32,191 nt of DNA from Planctomycetia bacterium (GCA_005808665.1 SYLG01000065.1:1-32191), one strand, 5' to 3'; numbered from the stretch's first letter, positions 20,606 to 29,724 are shown. Translations and numbers: made by a program. Notes: a model not told the origin generated them from the letters alone.

Positions 20606-21805
20606 ATGGTAATTGCTTTGTCCAAAAGCAGGCGAATCCTGACCGAAAAACTGCCCGCATCCCTGCGGGGATGGTTCGGGGTGATTTGGCCGTTTTTGGC
20701 TCTATTGTCCCTCTTTTATGGTGCTTTGATCGGGGTGAGAAACCTCTTCTTTCGGTTCCGCATTTTTCGGTCCAATCGCCTATTGGTCCCTGTTATTTCC
20801 ATTGGCAATCTGACAACAGGCGGAACGGGCAAAACGCCTTGTGCGGAATTTGTGGCAAGACACCTGCGCCAGCTAGGGTTAAGAGTGGCAATCATTAGCC
20901 GAGGTTATGGGGCTGTGAGTGGGAACAAGAATGACGAAACCAGGGTATTGGAGCAAAACCTCCCGGATGTTCCCCTCCTGGAGGGGGCGGATCGGACCGC
21001 CATGGGTCAAATCGCCATTGATCAACTCGAAACGGAAGTGATCCTTTTGGATGATGGTATGCAGCATCGGACCTTGGCAAGAAATCTTGAAATCGTCCTC
21101 CTTGATGCGACCGATCCGTTTGGGGGTGGTTGGCTTTTACCTGCCGGCCTTTTGCGCGAACCCAAGTCGGCTCTCCGTCGGGGCCATGCGATTCTCCTGA
21201 CCAATAGTGATCAGGTGGAGCCGACAGTTTTGGACCAGTTACACAAAAAGGTGGCTCAAATGGCCCCCAAGGCGGTGATTGCCCATGCCATTCACGAACC
21301 CAAAAATTGGATGGATGCCAATCTGCCGGGCGTGGATCTGCAATTGACTGAACGGCCGTTTGGTCCGGTTGCGATTGTGTGTGGCATTGGCAATCCTGAA
21401 GGCTTTGCCAGGACTCTGGAGCAGCTTGGCCTGAAGGTCACCCATCAAAGGCGATTTCCGGACCATCACGAATATTCCCTGGCAGACATAAAAGAGTTGG
21501 AAGCATGGGCAAAAAACCTGCCCGAAGGAACATGGCTGGCAACCACCCAAAAGGACATGGTCAAACTTCAAGTGGCGCAATTGGGTGGCCGCCAGTTGTT
21601 GGCACTAAAAATTGGGTTCAAGTTGACAATTGGTCGGGATCGGTTTTTGGCATTGATTGAATCGAAAGGTTTGGGTGGTTCCGATTATGTCAAGGAATTG
21701 GCCCCTGCCCCGCTTCGGCCGGAATTGGCTTTGGATGTTCCGCATTGGGACAAAAAGGTTCCGACCCTCAATCCTCAAACCCTTTCCGCCACGGGAGCCC
21801 AATGA
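20606..21805 (+). CDS. lpxK: Tetraacyldisaccharide 4'-kinase LpxK
   Basis: This lipid A enzyme phosphorylates the 4' position of tetraacyldisaccharide-1-phosphate at the inner-membrane face. The Walker A loop GNLTTGGTGKTP is at 67-78, preceded by a hydrophobic membrane-anchoring helix (about 24-45). It is followed by ISRGYGA (97-103) and LLDDGMQHRTL (148-158), all diagnostic for LpxK. The late segment FPDHHEYSLADI and the TTQKDMVKL motif also match. At 399 residues it is slightly longer than usual because of a C-terminal tail. The upstream ribosome-binding site is weak. It heads the plus-strand envelope operon; its stop overlaps the next start (ATGA). Confidence 0.95.
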   Translation: MVIALSKSRRILTEKLPASLRGWFGVIWPFLALLSLFYGALIGVRNLFFRFRIFRSNRLLVPVISIGNLTTGGTGKTPCAEFVARHLRQLGLRVAIISRGYGAVSGNKNDETRVLEQNLPDVPLLEGADRTAMGQIAIDQLETEVILLDDGMQHRTLARNLEIVLLDATDPFGGGWLLPAGLLREPKSALRRGHAILLTNSDQVEPTVLDQLHKKVAQMAPKAVIAHAIHEPKNWMDANLPGVDLQLTERPFGPVAIVCGIGNPEGFARTLEQLGLKVTHQRRFPDHHEYSLADIKELEAWAKNLPEGTWLATTQKDMVKLQVAQLGGRQLLALKIGFKLTIGRDRFLALIESKGLGGSDYVKELAPAPLRPELALDVPHWDKKVPTLNPQTLSATGAQ

Positions 21806-22824
21806 TGCCTAACCAGGATGATGGGTTTCCTCCTTTTGATCTGGCCGGATTAAAAACCTATTCCCTTGATTCAAGGGTTAGCAAAGTGTTTGCCGAGGAC
21901 CTTGGAAAGCCGGTTTCACCCGATGCGACTGTTGGGGAATGGTTGGAGGCCCTACCCAATCAACTTGCCGGAAAATGGATAAAGCGGGCTGCGACGGTGT
22001 TGGCAACCGCCGCGGAAGCCAAAGCGACCGTGGTAGCAGCCATTGGCGGCCATGTGATCAAAACAGGATGTGGTCCGTATCTCATTCGCCTTATGGAAGA
22101 AGGGGTAATCGGGGCGGTTGCCATGAACGGCGCAACCGCAATCCACGATTATGAATTGGCCCTTGCCGGGAAGACTTCGGAGGATGTGGGTGCTTGTCTT
22201 TTGGCGGGAACTTTCGGCATGGCCCGTGAGGTTGCGGATGCCTATTCCCATGCCGCAAGGGAGGGTGCCAAAGGGGGCGGGCTTGGTAGGGCTTTTGGTG
22301 ACCTCCTGGTCGACCAGGCCAACCGGGGGCTCCTTTCCCAACCCAAGGCCAGTGTTTTGCTTGCCGCAAGGAGGCTGGGCCTTCCTTTGACGATTCATGT
22401 TGCCATGGGGACGGACATTGTTCATATGCACCCCCAAGTGGGTGGGGCGGACTTGGGAGAGGCATCCCTCTTGGACTTTCGGCGGCTCTGCTCGGTGGTT
22501 GCCTCCATGAAAAACGGCGTCTGGTGGAACATTGGCAGTGCGGTCATCATGCCCGAAGTGTTTTTGAAGGCGGTGAGCGTGGTCCGCAACTTTGGCCACG
22601 ATATTTCCGGATTGATCGCTATCAACCTGGACAAAGAGGCCAAATACCGGAGTATGGTAAATGTCCTTCAGCGTCCCGCTTCCGAAGGGATCGAGCTAAC
22701 CGGACACCACGAGATCCTTTTGCCCCTTTTGTACCCTGCGATCCAATGGGCCAGGAGGCGATTGAACCCAACCGTTCCGGTTGAAAAGGTTTCCGATCCG
22801 GCCTCGTCAAGGAGTGCGGCATGA
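21802..22824 (+). CDS. Deoxyhypusine-synthase-like protein in LPS operon
   Basis: This protein of about 340 residues has a Rossmann-like character and resembles bacterial deoxyhypusine-synthase-family proteins. Key stretches are AAIGGHVIKTGCGPYLIRLM, AVAMNGATAIHDYELALAGK, HVAMGTDIVHMHPQVGGADL and GHHEILLPLLYPAI. Bacteria have no eIF5A, so the classical reaction is not expected. It lies between lpxK and hldE with 4-base ATGA overlaps at both ends, implying a role tied to LPS core or lipid A synthesis. ATGATG allows two starts (21802 or 21805); GGGAG at 21793-21797 fits the second better. The family name is a moderate-confidence reading and the function is unknown. Confidence 0.7.
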   Translation: MMPNQDDGFPPFDLAGLKTYSLDSRVSKVFAEDLGKPVSPDATVGEWLEALPNQLAGKWIKRAATVLATAAEAKATVVAAIGGHVIKTGCGPYLIRLMEEGVIGAVAMNGATAIHDYELALAGKTSEDVGACLLAGTFGMAREVADAYSHAAREGAKGGGLGRAFGDLLVDQANRGLLSQPKASVLLAARRLGLPLTIHVAMGTDIVHMHPQVGGADLGEASLLDFRRLCSVVASMKNGVWWNIGSAVIMPEVFLKAVSVVRNFGHDISGLIAINLDKEAKYRSMVNVLQRPASEGIELTGHHEILLPLLYPAIQWARRRLNPTVPVEKVSDPASSRSAA

Positions 22825-24398
22825 ATTCCACCACGGACTCAGGTGCGGCAAGCCTCAGCGAGTTGTCGGTGCTCGTCCAAAGTTTGGGCAGCCCAAAGAT
22901 CCTGGTTGTAGGCGACCTGATGCTCGATCGGTATGTCTGGGGAGATGCCTCACGCATTAGCCAGGAAGCCCCCGTAATCCTCCTCAAGGCCGATCGATCC
23001 GAAGAACGATTGGGTGGGGCGTCGAGTGTTGCCTCCCTGTTGGCGGCTCTGGGAGCCCGGGTGGATCTTTGTGGAATCACCGGGGAGGACGGAGCATCAC
23101 ACCGCGTCCGTTCCATTCTCGATGATTTGGGTATAGGGCATAAAAGCGTTTTCGCCGATCCCTCCCGCCCTACCACGGTGAAAGAGCGTTACATTGGCCG
23201 GGCCCAACATCGTCATCCCCAGCAGATGATTCGGGTGGACTACGAGGACTGCAAACCCATTCACAAAAACCTGGAGGAGCGGCTATTGGAAGCTGCCTTG
23301 GCAAGCCTTGAAGGGGTCGGTTGTGTCCAAATCAGTGATTATGACAAAGGTGTTTGCACTCCCGGCTTTTTGATCCCATTGATTCGGGAAGCACGCAGAA
23401 GGGGTATTCCCGTTTTGGCCGATCCGATCAGGGGAGGGGATTGGAACAAATACTCCGGTTCAAGTACCCTTACTCCCAATCGCCTGGAGGCAGGGCTTGC
23501 CGTTGGCCGAACCATTGAGACGGTAACCGATGCCTTGGCGGCAGGTGGGGAATTATTGGAAAAGTTTGGCCTCCAGGTTGGGATCGTGACCCTGGACAGG
23601 GATGGCATGGCCCTGGTTCGGCCCGATGGCAGGGCACATATTTTCCCGACCCGGCCGAGGCAGGTTTATGACATTACTGGTGCGGGCGACATGGTTATGG
23701 CGGTGTTGGGTATGGTATTGGCAACCGGGGCGGACTATCCCATGGCCATTCAGCTTGCCAATGTTGCAGGGGGCCTGGAGGTTGAAAAAATCGGGGTCCA
23801 ACCCGTGACCATTGCCGAAATACTGAGTGACCTGCATACCAGTGGGGCCACCTTGCCAATTCGCGAAAATGGCCGGGGGAAAATCGCCCTGGAATCCGAA
23901 ATTGGCCTACTCGTAAATGAAGCCAGGCAGATGGGCCGCCGGATTGTTTTCACCAATGGCTGTTTTGATCTGCTCCATGCCGGGCATGTCAGCTACCTTG
24001 CCGAGGCAAGGCGCCAGGGCGATTTTTTGGTGGTGGGACTCAATAGCGATGCATCGGTCCGTGGCCTCAAGGGACCTACCAGGCCCGTTCATCCGGAATG
24101 GGCCAGGGCAGCGGTTCTTGCCGGGCTGGAAGCGGTGGATATCGTCACCGTTTTTGGGGAAGCCACTCCCCTTTCGCTGATTCGCCGCATTCGTCCGGAT
24201 GTGTTGGTCAAAGGTGCCGACTATCGACTTGAAGATGTGGTGGGCGGGGATTTTGTAACCAGTCTTGGGGGTCGGGTTCACCTTGCGCCCCTTGAACCAG
24301 GTTTGAGCACAACCCAAGCTCTTGAAAAAACAAGGACGGTTGAAAAAAATCCATTGGCTGGAATGGGAGGGAATGAAACGAGGGCTGGGGCTGCCTAG
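22821..24398 (+). CDS. hldE: Bifunctional heptose-7-phosphate kinase / heptose-1-phosphate adenylyltransferase HldE
   Basis: This 525-residue protein makes the nucleotide-activated heptose for LPS core. The N-terminal ribokinase-like domain (about 25-335) contains GDLMLDRYVWGDASRISQEAP and the catalytic DITGAGD (Asp290). The C-terminal nucleotidyltransferase domain (about 370-500) contains FTNGCFDLLHAGHVSYL with the HxGH motif at 386-389. This is the standard two-domain HldE (RfaE) layout and length. The start overlaps the preceding stop (ATGA). An extra tail of about 30 residues after the transferase domain is low in complexity. A heptosyltransferase-like gene follows, so production and use of ADP-heptose are encoded side by side. 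Confidence 0.95.
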   Translation: MNSTTDSGAASLSELSVLVQSLGSPKILVVGDLMLDRYVWGDASRISQEAPVILLKADRSEERLGGASSVASLLAALGARVDLCGITGEDGASHRVRSILDDLGIGHKSVFADPSRPTTVKERYIGRAQHRHPQQMIRVDYEDCKPIHKNLEERLLEAALASLEGVGCVQISDYDKGVCTPGFLIPLIREARRRGIPVLADPIRGGDWNKYSGSSTLTPNRLEAGLAVGRTIETVTDALAAGGELLEKFGLQVGIVTLDRDGMALVRPDGRAHIFPTRPRQVYDITGAGDMVMAVLGMVLATGADYPMAIQLANVAGGLEVEKIGVQPVTIAEILSDLHTSGATLPIRENGRGKIALESEIGLLVNEARQMGRRIVFTNGCFDLLHAGHVSYLAEARRQGDFLVVGLNSDASVRGLKGPTRPVHPEWARAAVLAGLEAVDIVTVFGEATPLSLIRRIRPDVLVKGADYRLEDVVGGDFVTSLGGRVHLAPLEPGLSTTQALEKTRTVEKNPLAGMGGNETRAGAA

Positions 24399-24454: not shown

Positions 24455-25615
24455 GTGGCGGAGCGGATTGTGGCTTTCCTCCCTGGCTGGATTGGCGACG
24501 CCGTGATGGCGACCCCTGCGCTTCGTTCACTCCGTGAACGATTTGCCACGGCAAGAATCCTGTGGGTTGCCAAATCAGGCGTTGCCGCCGCTCTTCAGGG
24601 ATCTCCATGGAACGATGGAATCATCACCTCGGGTCCTGCAAGGGGATTGGCCAGGTTGGCGGAACCCCTGGCACTTGCCAGGATGGTTCGCACCCAACTG
24701 GGTGGAGCTCCCGATTTGGCCGTTTTGTTGTCCAACTCCATGCGTACGGGCCTTGCCGCCTGGTTATCTGGTGCAAATCGCCGGGTCGGCCAGGCACTTC
24801 ATTCAAGGCGGTTGCTCCTAAGCCATCCCATTGAACCCAAACGGGACGATAGTGGAAAACTTTTTCCCACCCCGATCATCGAGGTTTACAACCAGATCGC
24901 CAGGGAATCGGGTTGTGCCGAACCCGGTTTGGCTATGGAACTGTTCACGACCCGAAATGATGAATCCGATGCGGTTAGTGCGTTGTCGGTGGCAGGGTTT
25001 CGGCCCGGCATTCGCATCGTGGGCCTCCATGCTGGGGCGGCTTTTGGGGCCGCAAAACTCTGGCCCATTGACCGCTTTGCCGAGGTGGCCCGCAAGCTGG
25101 CCTCGATGGGCTTTGGGGTAATCGTTCTGGGTGGCCCATTGGAGGCGGCCCAGGCAAGAAACCTTGTTACCCAAGCGGCCCATCCCATGGTCCGGGCCTT
25201 GGCGGAACCTGGGATGCCTCCCCTTTCCCTGGGGTTGGTAAAAGCGGTTATCCGCAGGTTGGCTCTGCTGTTGACCACAGATAGTGGGCCAAGGCACATG
25301 GCTTCGGCCTTCAATCGGCCGGTGGTAACCCTGTTTGGTCCAACGCATATTGCTTGGACGGAAACATGGCAGGAAAATGCCATTCATCTGGCCTCACCGG
25401 TTTCGTGTGGACCCTGTCAAATGCGCATTTGCCCCATGGGGCATCATGAGTGTATGAATAACATTGGCACAGGACTTGTCCTGGATGTTATCCGGCAGGT
25501 AATGGAGGGGATTACCCCCCTTCCTGCAAGGCCTGGCGTCACCGGGGTCAGGGCCTTTGACCCGCCGAGGATTGCCCTTGGAATGAAGGCACTTGCCGAA
25601 AGGAAATCGGCGTGA
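24455..25615 (+). CDS. Glycosyltransferase family 9, heptosyltransferase (WaaF-like)
   Basis: This 386-residue GT9 protein begins at GTG with AGGAG about nine bases upstream. The N-terminus IVAFLPGWIGDAVMATPALRSL is the family signature for ADP-heptose:LPS heptosyltransferases. The C-terminal donor-binding half has GLHAGAAFGAAKLWP, TTDSGPRHMASAF and the VTLFGPTHIAWT motif, followed by a Cys-rich CGPCQMRICPMGHHEC typical of WaaF-type enzymes. It likely adds heptose to the lipid A-proximal core using the product of HldE next door. Whether it corresponds to WaaC or WaaF cannot be settled by eye; WaaF fits better. Its stop overlaps the next start (GTGA). Confidence 0.88.
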   Translation: MAERIVAFLPGWIGDAVMATPALRSLRERFATARILWVAKSGVAAALQGSPWNDGIITSGPARGLARLAEPLALARMVRTQLGGAPDLAVLLSNSMRTGLAAWLSGANRRVGQALHSRRLLLSHPIEPKRDDSGKLFPTPIIEVYNQIARESGCAEPGLAMELFTTRNDESDAVSALSVAGFRPGIRIVGLHAGAAFGAAKLWPIDRFAEVARKLASMGFGVIVLGGPLEAAQARNLVTQAAHPMVRALAEPGMPPLSLGLVKAVIRRLALLLTTDSGPRHMASAFNRPVVTLFGPTHIAWTETWQENAIHLASPVSCGPCQMRICPMGHHECMNNIGTGLVLDVIRQVMEGITPLPARPGVTGVRAFDPPRIALGMKALAERKSA

Positions 25616-28407
25616 TTTCTTCCTTGCTTCTCTTTTTGATTCTCTCCCTGATTGCCTTTCTGGCCTTTCGGGCCATGCCTTTGCAAAAGAGGGTGGTAAT
25701 CGCTCCGGGTTGCCGGGACCGATCCCATCGTTATGGCCTTGTTCATGCAAAAGATTTTTTGGATCTTCCTTGTGTACGAATCGGGGGGCACCGCCGTCGC
25801 TTCGTGGCAAGGGTTGGCCTCCCCGCCGGCTTCCAGGGAAATCCGCCAATCAATATTCACGATCCCTGTTCCGGGGGGGCCTGTCCTGAGGCGGCCTGGC
25901 CAGGGGCACTTTTGAAAGTTGAGGAACGCCTCCCTTTTGCCAAAAAACTGGTCTCCCCGATTTGGAACCTCCTTGGGAAATCAGGGACCAGGCTTGAGGC
26001 CTCAAACCTCGAAATGGCGGCGCGGTATGGACTGGCTGCTCCTTCATGGATCGCTTACGGCGCCCACCGGGGACGCTCCTTTCTTTTAATCGCCGAAATC
26101 CCAGGGGCAATGCCTTTGGTGCAGGCGGCAACATCGCCCTACCGGGCATTGCGTTTCGCCCTCTGGATGGGAAAAACCCTGGCAAGGATGCACGCCCTTG
26201 GGGTTGTCCACGGAGACCTTTTTCTCAAACATGTTTTGTTTGATCCCGAAAAAGGGGAGCCTGTTTTTGTGGATTGGCAAAGGGCAAGGCTGGTAATGGC
26301 ACCAACCCTTGCCGACCGCCTACGGGACCTTGCCGCCCTGGTGTTTTCCCTACCCAAAGCCTTTGAACCCTTTCATTCGCACACAATGTCTTCCCGGGTT
26401 GGCAAATTGATCCTGGACCATGCCCTTGGTGCCTACCTCCGGGAAGCGGAAAAATACCCTAATCCTGGGGCAATGCTACCCGGGTTTTCAATCCTATGCA
26501 AACTTGTCGAACGGGAGGTTGGCCAACTCTCGGCAAGGCACGGACCCCGGGGTAGCCAGTCCCAACAAGGACACCGCCCAGGCCATGACTGGGTGGTGGC
26601 CAACCGCCCAGACTGTCGCCATTTTGCCTGGACCACCCTTGGGATTGAGAAAACCGGGTTGGTGGAAAGCTCGATGGAATGGATGGGTCGTAGTGCCCAA
26701 AGGCTTTCGGAAAAAGGTCGAGCCAGGGGAATTGGGTGGGTCCGTGGCGGGGATGGCCACATAGTGACAGGCATTGCCTGGTGGCAGGAAAAACAAACCT
26801 CATGGACCTTTCGGTTGGGACATCGTTCCACCGCCCCTGAAATTGCCTTGGCAGGGAGGCTGTTCCACCTGGATAACCTTGGTATCGAGGTTTCCAAAGT
26901 CTTGGCCCGTGGCGTTTTCCTTTTTCCCGGACCGAAAAAAAACCGCCTCCATTTTCTTGTCTTTCAACCACCAAGGCAGGGGATGGGGATTGGGCTTTGG
27001 CTTCGAAAGACAGCATTTCAACCAGGGTCACGCCGGAAGGCAATCATGGAGGGAATGGGTAGGTCGTTGGCCCAACTTCATGCCAGGGGAGTCCATCTTT
27101 TCACGACTCATGGAGTCAAAAAAAGACCTAATGGATTATTGGTCCCTTTCAGCATCCAACCCGGGCGGTCGAAAGTGTGGCTTCAGTGTCCTTCGGAATG
27201 TACCTTTCAGGGAAAAAATCTGGTAGGAAGCCGTGAGGCATGGGCCGACCTTGGCTGCCTTATCAGGAGGCTCATTGGCTTGGGTGCCTCCCCTTTGGAG
27301 ACTTCCTGGCTTCAGCAGGAGTACCTCACCTCTGCCCTTCCGGAGACGCGTAAAACGGAACTCTTTTTCGAGGTTGAAAAATCCAAACCCATTCTGGTTT
27401 CGGCCATGGCCTCTTTGGGAGACTCCAAAACCTGGAAATCCCTCCAAAAGGAAGGAATCGGGCCGGGACCGCGGGGGTCCTTGCGGAATGAGCCTTCGTT
27501 TTTGGATCAAAGCCGGTCCTTGCCTCCCATTCAAAAGGGCCGTCGTACCTGGGCAGACGATGAGTGGGTCCGGTTTGTCGGTCCAAACTGGGCCGATTCG
27601 ATCATGGACATTAAACTCACGGATCGATTTCACGCAAAACAGGGCCGCTCCGTAGGGCGCTGGGAAATACCGGGTCCGGAAAAAACCGGAGAAAAGCTCA
27701 TTGTTTATCTGAAACGCCACAACATTCTTCCCATGCTCGATGGACTGCTGGCCCGTTTGATTGCCCGGTGGCCAAGGTCGCCCGCTCTCCAGGAATGGCA
27801 ACATTTAAGGTGGGCTTTGGAATTGGGAATTCCAGTCCCCCGGGGGCTTGCGGTTGCCGAATTTCATGGACCAGGCACCCGGTTGCAAAGCTGTTTGGTG
27901 GTTGCCGAGCTTACCGGGATGATCCCTTTGCACGAGGCTTTGCCATTGGCTTGTCAACGGATGGAGCAGGAAAGGTTCCACCATTGGAAACGGGGGCTGT
28001 TACGGGAAATGGCTCGTATTGCAAGGCTTTTGCATGACCGCTGCTATTTTCATAAGGATTTTTATCTTTGTCATTTCTACATCAGGGAATCCGATACTTG
28101 GCGCATCCCTGCTTCGTGGTTTAACCAGGTGGTATTAATCGACCTGCACCGGTTGGCAAGCCATCGCCTTTTTTGGCCCATTTACCAGATAAAGGACCTG
28201 GCCCAGTTACTTTTTTCCTCGGAGGTAACGGGTGTTTGTGCGAAGGACAGGATCGCCTTCTGGAGGGCCTATCAGGGATTGGCAACCGGGGATGGGCACG
28301 GCCAGGGGTGGTATCAACGGATCGTGGCCAGAATCATTCGCTGGAAATGGCAACGGTATCGCCACCACAATTTGAAGCTGGACCATGGGGTGCGTCGTGC
28401 CGCGTAA
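25612..28407 (+). CDS. Large protein with three WaaP/InaA-type kinase-like segments
   Basis: This 931-residue protein starts with a hydrophobic helix (residues 3-20) and then has three protein-kinase-fold-like segments of the LPS core kinase type. The first (about 100-300) has an intact catalytic loop H200-G-D202-L and metal motif D221-W-Q. The second (about 310-600) has the surrounding pattern (MGRSLAQLHARGVHLF) but no HxD. The third (about 615-925) has H814-K-D816-F-Y-L-C-H-F and D844-L-H-R, very close to WaaP (RfaP), which phosphorylates heptose in the core. It is coupled to the heptosyltransferase gene by a GTGA overlap. Likely role: LPS core phosphorylation, perhaps at two sites, with the middle part structural. 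An unusually long fusion; most family members have one domain. Confidence 0.75.
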   Translation: MISSLLLFLILSLIAFLAFRAMPLQKRVVIAPGCRDRSHRYGLVHAKDFLDLPCVRIGGHRRRFVARVGLPAGFQGNPPINIHDPCSGGACPEAAWPGALLKVEERLPFAKKLVSPIWNLLGKSGTRLEASNLEMAARYGLAAPSWIAYGAHRGRSFLLIAEIPGAMPLVQAATSPYRALRFALWMGKTLARMHALGVVHGDLFLKHVLFDPEKGEPVFVDWQRARLVMAPTLADRLRDLAALVFSLPKAFEPFHSHTMSSRVGKLILDHALGAYLREAEKYPNPGAMLPGFSILCKLVEREVGQLSARHGPRGSQSQQGHRPGHDWVVANRPDCRHFAWTTLGIEKTGLVESSMEWMGRSAQRLSEKGRARGIGWVRGGDGHIVTGIAWWQEKQTSWTFRLGHRSTAPEIALAGRLFHLDNLGIEVSKVLARGVFLFPGPKKNRLHFLVFQPPRQGMGIGLWLRKTAFQPGSRRKAIMEGMGRSLAQLHARGVHLFTTHGVKKRPNGLLVPFSIQPGRSKVWLQCPSECTFQGKNLVGSREAWADLGCLIRRLIGLGASPLETSWLQQEYLTSALPETRKTELFFEVEKSKPILVSAMASLGDSKTWKSLQKEGIGPGPRGSLRNEPSFLDQSRSLPPIQKGRRTWADDEWVRFVGPNWADSIMDIKLTDRFHAKQGRSVGRWEIPGPEKTGEKLIVYLKRHNILPMLDGLLARLIARWPRSPALQEWQHLRWALELGIPVPRGLAVAEFHGPGTRLQSCLVVAELTGMIPLHEALPLACQRMEQERFHHWKRGLLREMARIARLLHDRCYFHKDFYLCHFYIRESDTWRIPASWFNQVVLIDLHRLASHRLFWPIYQIKDLAQLLFSSEVTGVCAKDRIAFWRAYQGLATGDGHGQGWYQRIVARIIRWKWQRYRHHNLKLDHGVRRAA

Positions 28408-28551
28408 TCGTTTTCGGGGCTCCCAACTCAAGGTATGGACCCCAATTTCCGATAAAGGAGGGGTACTTGTTGCCTTGGGGTTCTCCTGGGTGGTTGATGA
28501 ATGGATCCGGGCCAGGCCAAAGGAGTTGTCCGTCCCTTTGGGGATGAACCT

Positions 28552-29724
28552 ATGAACATTGCCTTTTGCTATGAAAGTGTGCTCCCGGAACGGGGAGGCT
28601 GTGAAACCTATATTGCCGCCTTGGCACACCGACTGGTTGCCGATGGTCACAAAGTTCATCTGTACGCCTCCCGTTGGGATGCCGCCAAACTTCCCGCCAA
28701 ACTCACCTACCACGCTCTTCCCATTCCCTCCTGGCCCAGGTTTTTAAGGCCGTGGCGCTTTGGAAGTGCGGTGTTAAACGCCCTTGAGGGGCATGACCAC
28801 GATATTACCGTGGGTTTTGACAAGACTTGGGGATTGGATATTATTTACCCCCAGGGGGGGCTTTTTGCCGCAAGTGCCCATCAAAACCTTTTGAAAATTG
28901 CCAATCCGGTCCAACGCAAGATCATGGCTTTTCTCAAACAGTTCGACCTGGCCCATTTTTCCTTTACTTCCCTTGAACGGCGCCAATACCTTGGCAATCA
29001 CAAAAGCATCATCATCGCCATAAGCGACATGGTTCGGCAACATTTCCAAACCTATTACAAAATCTCCTCCACCGACCTTCGCATGGTTCGGATCGCTTTC
29101 AATCCCGACCGGTTCGTGGAGAAGGATCGGCCCAAAAGGAGGATGGATTGGAGAACCGCCTGGAACCTTGCCCCAGAGGATAATGTGGGACTTTTTTGTG
29201 GCATGAATTACCGGCTCAAGGGACTGGAACCGCTTCTGCATGCGGTAAAACTCATGCCCGAGACCCCAAAATTTCGGCTGGTGGTGGTGGGTTCGCCAAA
29301 AACTACCGCTTTCGAACGACTGGCCAAAAAACTGGGGATTTCAGACAAGGTTCGCTTTGTCGGTTATCAGGCCGATATGCGCAATGGCTATTTTGCCGCC
29401 GACTTTTTTATCCATCCCACCTTTTACGACCCTTGCTCCCATGTGATAACAGAGGCCATGGCCTGTGGCCTTCCCGTGATCACCTCAAAATACAACGGTG
29501 CCTCGGAATTGATGACTCCCCCAAACGAGGGATTCATTGTCGACAACCCGCACGACCATCAGAAACTTGCCGATTGCATGGTCCATTTCCTTGATCCGGC
29601 AAAACGCCTTGCGGCCGGCCAGGCGGGGAGGCGGACGGCCCAAAGTTGGACTTTTGATCATCATTATCGCCAAATGCTGGAAGTATTCCGGGAAGGTGCT
29701 CAACGCCGTCGCCAAGCCGCTTGA
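28552..29724 (+). CDS. Glycosyltransferase family 4 (WaaG-like)
   Basis: This 390-residue GT-B glycosyltransferase has the N-terminal acceptor half MNIAFCYESVLPERGGCETYIAALA. The C-terminal donor half has FCGMNYRLKGLEPLLHA, VVVGSP, VRFVGYQADMRNGYFAADFF and DPCSHVITEAMACGLPVITS. The usual GT4 E-x7-E motif is D-x7-E here. It resembles WaaG, which adds the first outer-core sugar, and its place at the end of the LPS operon agrees. The Met at 28552 was chosen because it begins the Rossmann strand and has GGGG upstream; the frame is open to 28501 but those residues look non-native. The gap from the preceding gene is about 144 bases. Confidence 0.85.
   Translation: MNIAFCYESVLPERGGCETYIAALAHRLVADGHKVHLYASRWDAAKLPAKLTYHALPIPSWPRFLRPWRFGSAVLNALEGHDHDITVGFDKTWGLDIIYPQGGLFAASAHQNLLKIANPVQRKIMAFLKQFDLAHFSFTSLERRQYLGNHKSIIIAISDMVRQHFQTYYKISSTDLRMVRIAFNPDRFVEKDRPKRRMDWRTAWNLAPEDNVGLFCGMNYRLKGLEPLLHAVKLMPETPKFRLVVVGSPKTTAFERLAKKLGISDKVRFVGYQADMRNGYFAADFFIHPTFYDPCSHVITEAMACGLPVITSKYNGASELMTPPNEGFIVDNPHDHQKLADCMVHFLDPAKRLAAGQAGRRTAQSWTFDHHYRQMLEVFREGAQRRRQAA

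What the first reader, a model, noticed from the sequence alone, without database searches (positions are those of the whole stretch)
25612..28407. Three kinase-like segments fused in one LPS-operon protein
Residues around 200 (HGDL...DWQ) and 814 (HKDFYLCHF...DLHR) look like two intact but different LPS kinase active sites. The middle third keeps the helix before the catalytic loop but not the HxD. WaaP, WaaY, KdkA and InaA are normally single-domain. A protein with two active kinases and a pseudokinase between them, anchored by an N-terminal helix, might phosphorylate two core positions.
Basis: partly seen in the sequence, partly recalled or inferred. Interest (0 to 1): 0.6.

Follow-up and report, generated by a model that had tools for sequence, protein, structure and literature searches.

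The report
Triple LPS-core kinase with dead middle
In one family of budding bacteria (Gemmataceae), two enzymes predicted to add phosphates to the sugar core of the outer-membrane lipid LPS have been joined through a third, conserved but catalytically dead copy into one membrane-anchored protein, an arrangement I found no description of in the open-access papers I could search.

Summary
The 931-aa ORF (25612-28407) contains three Kdo/WaaP-type kinase-fold domains: D1 (res. 33-310), D2 (310-625) and D3 (645-925). D3 carries every catalytic and substrate residue I checked against the WaaP crystal-structure paper. D1 carries Lys, Glu, HxD and DW. D2 is kinase-related by profile, but its HxD is gone in all 22 fused homologues, so it is a conserved pseudokinase (dN/dS about 0.15-0.18, like D1). 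AlphaFold failed (pLDDT 29-33), so the fold evidence is sequence profiles only. The gene sits in a conserved Gemmataceae operon: LpxK - GSU2086-type - HldE - heptosyltransferase - kinases - GT4. Comparison gives a ladder: a sister family has D1 and D3 as separate single-domain genes; most Gemmataceae examined have D1-D2 next to D3; some genera have D1-D2-D3 fused, and only these have the N-terminal hydrophobic helix and always an intact D1 HxD. In most unfused D1-D2 proteins the D1 His is lost. Best reading: a membrane-anchored inner-core kinase with two competent active sites and a scaffold or regulatory pseudokinase. The two-site chemistry is inferred, not shown. New variant of a known kind.

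The parts
25612..28407 (+). triple-domain kinase ORF, 931 aa (D1-D2-D3)
   Evidence: fused in three congeneric genomes (66-78% id) and 22 examined loci in all
25612..25671 (+). N-terminal hydrophobic helix (res. 1-20), basic residues after it: predicted membrane anchor, kinase part cytoplasmic
   Evidence: Kyte-Doolittle 19-mer 2.72; hydrophobic N-terminal stretch in 22/22 fused homologues, absent from nearly all unfused D1D2 proteins
25708..26541 (+). D1, KdkA/WaaP-type kinase domain (res. 33-310)
   Evidence: KdkA model 19/19 members, WaaP model 18/19; 6DFL E 2.8e-17
25915..25917 (+). D1 catalytic Lys K102 (WaaP K51)
   Evidence: alignment; invariant 67/67
26209..26217 (+). D1 HGD (H200-D202; WaaP H161-D163)
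26272..26280 (+). D1 DWQ (D221; WaaP D188)
26539..27486 (+). D2, pseudokinase of the Kdo/WaaP fold (res. 310-625)
27079..27111 (+). D2 degenerate catalytic loop (H490-H500, HxD lost: L496, T498)
27328..27543 (+). fast-evolving linker D2-D3 (res. 573-644; overlaps the end of the D2 profile match)
   Evidence: dN/dS about 0.4, identity 57% against 74-86% in the domains
27544..28386 (+). D3, WaaP-type kinase domain (res. 645-925)
   Evidence: PF06293 3.5e-34; WaaP model 19/19; 6DFL E 9.9e-24
28051..28059 (+). D3 HKD (H814-D816; WaaP H161-D163)
   Evidence: invariant 81/81
28141..28152 (+). D3 DLHR (844-847; WaaP D188-R191)
24455..25615 (+). GT9 heptosyltransferase II-like, same operon
22821..24398 (+). 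HldE, ADP-heptose synthesis
21745..22824 (+). GSU2086-family protein of the operon (function unknown to me)
20606..21805 (+). LpxK, lipid A 4'-kinase
28501..29724 (+). GT4 glycosyltransferase, conserved downstream neighbour

Best explanation
A membrane-anchored, bifunctional LPS inner-core kinase. Shown by sequence: three Kdo/WaaP-type domains; complete catalytic residues in D1 and D3; loss of HxD in D2; conservation of D2 under purifying selection; an N-terminal hydrophobic helix; a lipid A/heptose/core operon. Inferred: the helix holds the protein at the cytoplasmic face of the inner membrane where lipid A-core is built; D3 acts like WaaP on an inner-core heptose; D1 (KdkA/WaaP-like) phosphorylates a second inner-core sugar (Kdo or the other heptose); D2 does no phosphotransfer but holds D1 and D3 in position or helps bind substrate. 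The fusion probably arose from adjacent genes, D1 gaining D2 and D1-D2 then joining D3.
For: D3 has WaaP K51, E78, H161, D163, Y165, H168, D188 and R191 equivalents; all but the last-named motif neighbours are invariant in 81/81 homologues. Mutation of K51, H161, D163, Y165, H168, D188 or R191 in P. aeruginosa WaaP abolishes growth, and E78A is listed at 128 on the EDTA-sensitivity scale where wild type is 1 (PMC6147952). D1 K102, E129, H207 and D221 are conserved and its HxD is intact in 22/22 fused proteins. D2 is Kdo/WaaP-like by profile with HxD lost. dN/dS between congeners: D1 0.18-0.19, D2 0.15-0.18, D3 0.08-0.09. Operon conserved across the Gemmataceae loci examined and partly beyond. 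Hydrophobic helix in 22/22 fused. Own genome has WaaA, LpxB and two GT9 genes. Sister-family genomes have D1 and D3 as separate 270-315 aa genes in the same operon.
Against: No structure: both AlphaFold runs failed (pLDDT 32.6 and 29.1). No activity data. Neither D1 nor D3 reaches NCBIfam's equivalog cut-off for KdkA (142 bits) or WaaP (170 bits). Most unfused D1-D2 relatives have lost the D1 HxD His (27 of 33 readable), so D1 catalysis is dispensable there. The link of fusion, helix and intact D1 rests on one or two evolutionary events.
Confidence: 0.6

Rival explanations
1. Only D3 is an LPS kinase in practice; D1 and D2 together are a binding, positioning or regulatory module for D3, D1 having been kept intact in fused lineages for ATP-dependent regulation.
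For: In unfused Gemmataceae D1 keeps Lys, Glu and the metal Asp but has lost the HxD His in 27/33, while D3 is invariant. D1 evolves faster than D3.
Against: All 22 fused proteins and 7 of 8 D1 loci without a detected D2 keep the HxD His, which is unexpected for a dead module.
Confidence: 0.22
2. D2 keeps a non-canonical activity (nucleotide binding or another transfer reaction, as reported for some other pseudokinases), rather than being inert.
For: The metal-site Asp position is still Asp in 9/22 fused D2 domains, and D2 is under purifying selection.
Against: No conserved Lys at the beta-3 position, alpha-C Glu variable, metal Asp absent in this window's D2, HxD lost in all fused homologues.
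Confidence: 0.08
3. D1 phosphorylates something other than LPS, for example a protein, since it also resembles Bud32/TP53RK and APH kinases.
For: Bud32 model hits in 16/19 and TP53RK structures as next-best PDB hits.
Against: KdkA and WaaP are the most widely matched models and 6DFL the best structure; the operon is LPS-related.
Confidence: 0.06
4. The fusion is an assembly or frameshift artefact and the middle is an unrelated domain.
For: The window's own D2 alone matches no Pfam family.
Against: Same full-length ORF in three congeneric genomes and many genera; D2 profile evidence.
Confidence: 0.02

Closest known systems
WaaP/RfaP, LPS core heptose(I) kinase (PDB 6DFL; E. coli waaP; NF011703)
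   Same: D3 aligns across the kinase domain with the catalytic and substrate residues named in PMC6147952; same kind of gene neighbourhood (heptosyltransferases, GT4).
   Different: Single-domain, about 265 aa, soluble, separate gene; D3 is below the WaaP equivalog cut-off and joined to two further domains and a hydrophobic helix.
KdkA, Kdo kinase (NF002475 / PF06293)
   Same: D1's most consistent curated model (19/19), with HxD and Asp of the metal site.
   Different: Below the equivalog cut-off (32-41 bits against 142); fused; metal motif is DWQR.
P. aeruginosa/P. syringae core kinase cluster waaP-wapP-wapQ-PA5006 (PMC8005017, PMC6147952)
   Same: Several core kinases encoded side by side in an LPS-core locus.
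   Different: Listed there as separate genes; no fused protein with a pseudokinase is described in the passages read.
Eukaryotic kinase-pseudokinase tandem proteins (JAKs; plant tandem kinase proteins) - from general knowledge
   Same: Active kinase and pseudokinase in one chain, the latter with a regulatory role.
   Different: Protein kinases of eukaryotes; analogy only, no membership.

Membership tests
PF06293 Kdo/WaaP family | score over gathering cut-off | tested here: met
   whole protein 118.5 bits against 21.3, best stretch D3; both D3 and D1 over cut-off in the six-frame genome search
PF06293 Kdo/WaaP family | D2 belongs to the same fold family | tested here: met
   18/19 D2 homologues match; profile hits 6DFL and E. 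coli WaaP; the window's own D2 alone does not match
WaaP (heptose I kinase), for D3 | catalytic and substrate residues K51, E78, H161, D163, Y165, H168, D188, R191 | tested here: met
WaaP (heptose I kinase), for D3 | NCBIfam equivalog cut-off 170 bits | tested here: not met
   97.4 bits for the whole protein, 83.9 for D3 alone
WaaP (heptose I kinase), for D3 | phosphorylates Hep I | not testable with these tools
   needs enzymology or mass spectrometry
KdkA (Kdo kinase), for D1 | NCBIfam equivalog cut-off 142 bits | tested here: not met
   40.9 bits, 32.3
KdkA (Kdo kinase), for D1 | catalytic Lys, Glu, HxD and metal Asp present | tested here: met
   K102, E129, H200/D202, D221
Pseudokinase, for D2 | kinase homology with catalytic HxD lost | tested here: met
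   no His at the HxD position in any readable D2 of 22 fused and 34 unfused loci; 22/22 fused have Leu
Pseudokinase, for D2 | no phosphotransfer activity | not testable with these tools
   needs a biochemical assay
Membrane-anchored protein | N-terminal transmembrane helix | tested here: inconclusive
   hydropathy only, conserved in 22/22 fused; no topology experiment

The most novel reading that the evidence does not exclude
The conserved middle pseudokinase acts as an allosteric or scaffolding regulator that couples two LPS-core phosphorylation sites in one membrane-anchored enzyme: a bacterial LPS-modifying counterpart of kinase-pseudokinase pairs.
Probability: 0.35. Interest if true: 0.65.

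Novelty: new variant of a known kind. Interest (0 to 1): 0.5.

Why it matters
It gives a traceable path from two single-domain LPS kinases to a fused protein with a conserved dead domain, with intermediates in related genomes, so the role of a pseudokinase in a bacterial small-molecule kinase system can be tested by swapping natural variants. It also bears on whether and how Planctomycetota phosphorylate their LPS core; I found no paper on that in the library searched.

Tried and rejected
A first domain tally misassigned some sister-family loci as having D2 because of cross-hits; redone with non-overlapping assignment. Literature searches found no description of such a fusion; the library is open-access papers only. 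Independent origins of the fusion: the best tree needs two changes, but one clade is not rejected (p-AU 0.415), so no claim is made. Correlation of fusion with intact D1: only 1-2 independent pairs, no statistical support. D2 outside the family: weak generic kinase-like hits only in 294 genomes drawn across the phylum (best 75 bits against 291 for the window).

Full report
The window is contig C35 of a 4.5 Mb, 186-contig genome. A 78%-identical homologue comes from a MAG titled Gemmataceae bacterium Baikal-deep-G173; I call the window's family Gemmataceae on that basis. The ORF 25612-28407 (931 aa) starts with GTG, overlapping the stop of the upstream GT9 gene by 4 nt. The congener aligned has the same GTG start and lacks the downstream Met22, so the start is probably right.

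Domains. Pfam finds PF06293 (3.5e-34, best stretch 720-887) and APH (196-227) in the whole protein. Alignments of 19 fused homologues were made for D2 (A1), D1 (A2) and D3 (A3). Profile comparison: D1-D3 98.7%, D2-D1 98.5%, D2-D3 95.9%. In the PDB the best match of all three profiles is WaaP 6DFL: D3 9.9e-24, D1 2.8e-17, D2 3e-6. 18 of 19 D2 homologues match PF06293 alone, best 6e-13, although the window's own D2 does not. D2 also hits E. coli WaaP with 29.5 bits. So there are three kinase-related domains.

Active sites. PMC6147952 names K51, E78, H161-R162-D163, Y165, H168, D188 and R191 of P. aeruginosa WaaP. Mutants of K51, H161, D163, Y165, H168, D188 and R191 did not grow; R162A was near normal and E78A strongly EDTA-sensitive. 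D3 has the equivalents K701, E728, H814, D816, Y818, H821, D844 and R847, each invariant in 81/81. D1 has K102, E129, H200, D202, F204, H207, D221 and R224. D2 has Leu496 and Thr498 at the HxD positions, no conserved Lys, Gln525 at the metal Asp position, but keeps the alpha-F Asp (D546). In all 22 fused homologues the HxD His position of D2 is Leu. The metal Asp remains in 9 of 22, so the loss is stepwise.

D2 is not decaying. Between the window and its 78% congener, dN/dS is 0.18-0.19 for D1, 0.15-0.18 for D2, 0.08-0.09 for D3 and 0.41 for the D2-D3 linker (only this pair is unsaturated at synonymous sites, so the values are rough).

Surroundings. LpxK, a GSU2086-family gene, HldE, GT9, the kinase and GT4 run in one direction. 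The order, or the part of it inside the fetched stretch, recurs in the Gemmataceae examined. The genome also has WaaA, LpxB and a second GT9 gene, so a Kdo- and heptose-containing core is likely.

Evolution. Non-overlapping profile assignment gives 22 fused D1-D2-D3 loci, 34 loci with D1-D2 next to D3, 8 with D1 and D3 and no detected D2 (six from the sister family, one from a further family, one Gemmataceae genome), 14 with D3 only and 5 broken or at contig edges. These loci were picked from search hits, so the counts are not frequencies. In the sister family f2 the two kinases are mostly separate genes of about 270-315 aa in the same operon; in one of them D3 is instead fused to the GT4. In the f3 loci checked, an epimerase and a mannosyltransferase-like gene stand where D1-D2 would be. 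Outside the family the D2 profile finds only weak generic hits. The D3 tree puts the fused proteins in two groups, but a single group is not rejected.

Two features go with fusion. All 22 fused proteins have an N-terminal hydrophobic stretch, usually followed by basic residues, and the unfused D1-D2 proteins nearly all lack it. All 22 have an intact D1 HxD, while 27 of 33 readable unfused D1-D2 proteins have Thr, Ser, Gln or another residue for the His. With one or two independent events this is descriptive only.

Mechanism. Most likely the protein sits at the cytoplasmic face of the inner membrane and phosphorylates two inner-core sugars, D3 as a WaaP-like heptose kinase and D1 on Kdo or a second heptose, with D2 as a scaffold or regulator. 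Active-site content, D2 loss and context are shown by sequence; substrates, the number of phosphates and the D2 role are inferred. Structure prediction failed for lack of usable alignment depth.

Known or new. D1 and D3 belong to PF06293, but neither reaches the curated cut-offs of KdkA or WaaP. Pseudomonas has several core kinases listed as separate genes (PMC8005017). Searches of the open-access library found no fused LPS kinase with a pseudokinase. I rate it a new variant of a known kind.

Noticed in passing
own genome C118, L127:6788-8380 (-): A second two-domain Kdo/WaaP-fold protein (530 aa) with two catalytic-like loops (HFHPDPHPGN...IDIHQ and VYNRDMKAAN...VDLGG), next to a glycosyltransferase and near smpB.
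   Followed up: partly
L078:4891-7149: In a sister-family genome the D3-type kinase is fused to the GT4 glycosyltransferase that otherwise follows it in the operon.
   Followed up: partly
L054, L058, L071-L073, L083-L087 and others: Unfused Gemmataceae D1-D2 proteins with the D1 catalytic His replaced (TPDL, SPDL, QPDL), so two of the three domains may be pseudokinases there.
   Followed up: partly
L118-L121: Some genomes with the fused gene (G066, G044, G038, G056) also have a second, stand-alone D3-type kinase, near another weak D1-like ORF.
   Followed up: no
L062, L066, L067: In class-level relatives an epimerase and a PMT_2 mannosyltransferase-like gene stand between GT9 and D3, where D1-D2 is found in Gemmataceae.
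   Followed up: partly
window 21745-22824: The GSU2086-family protein, of unknown role, recurs in this lipid A/heptose operon across the family.
   Followed up: no
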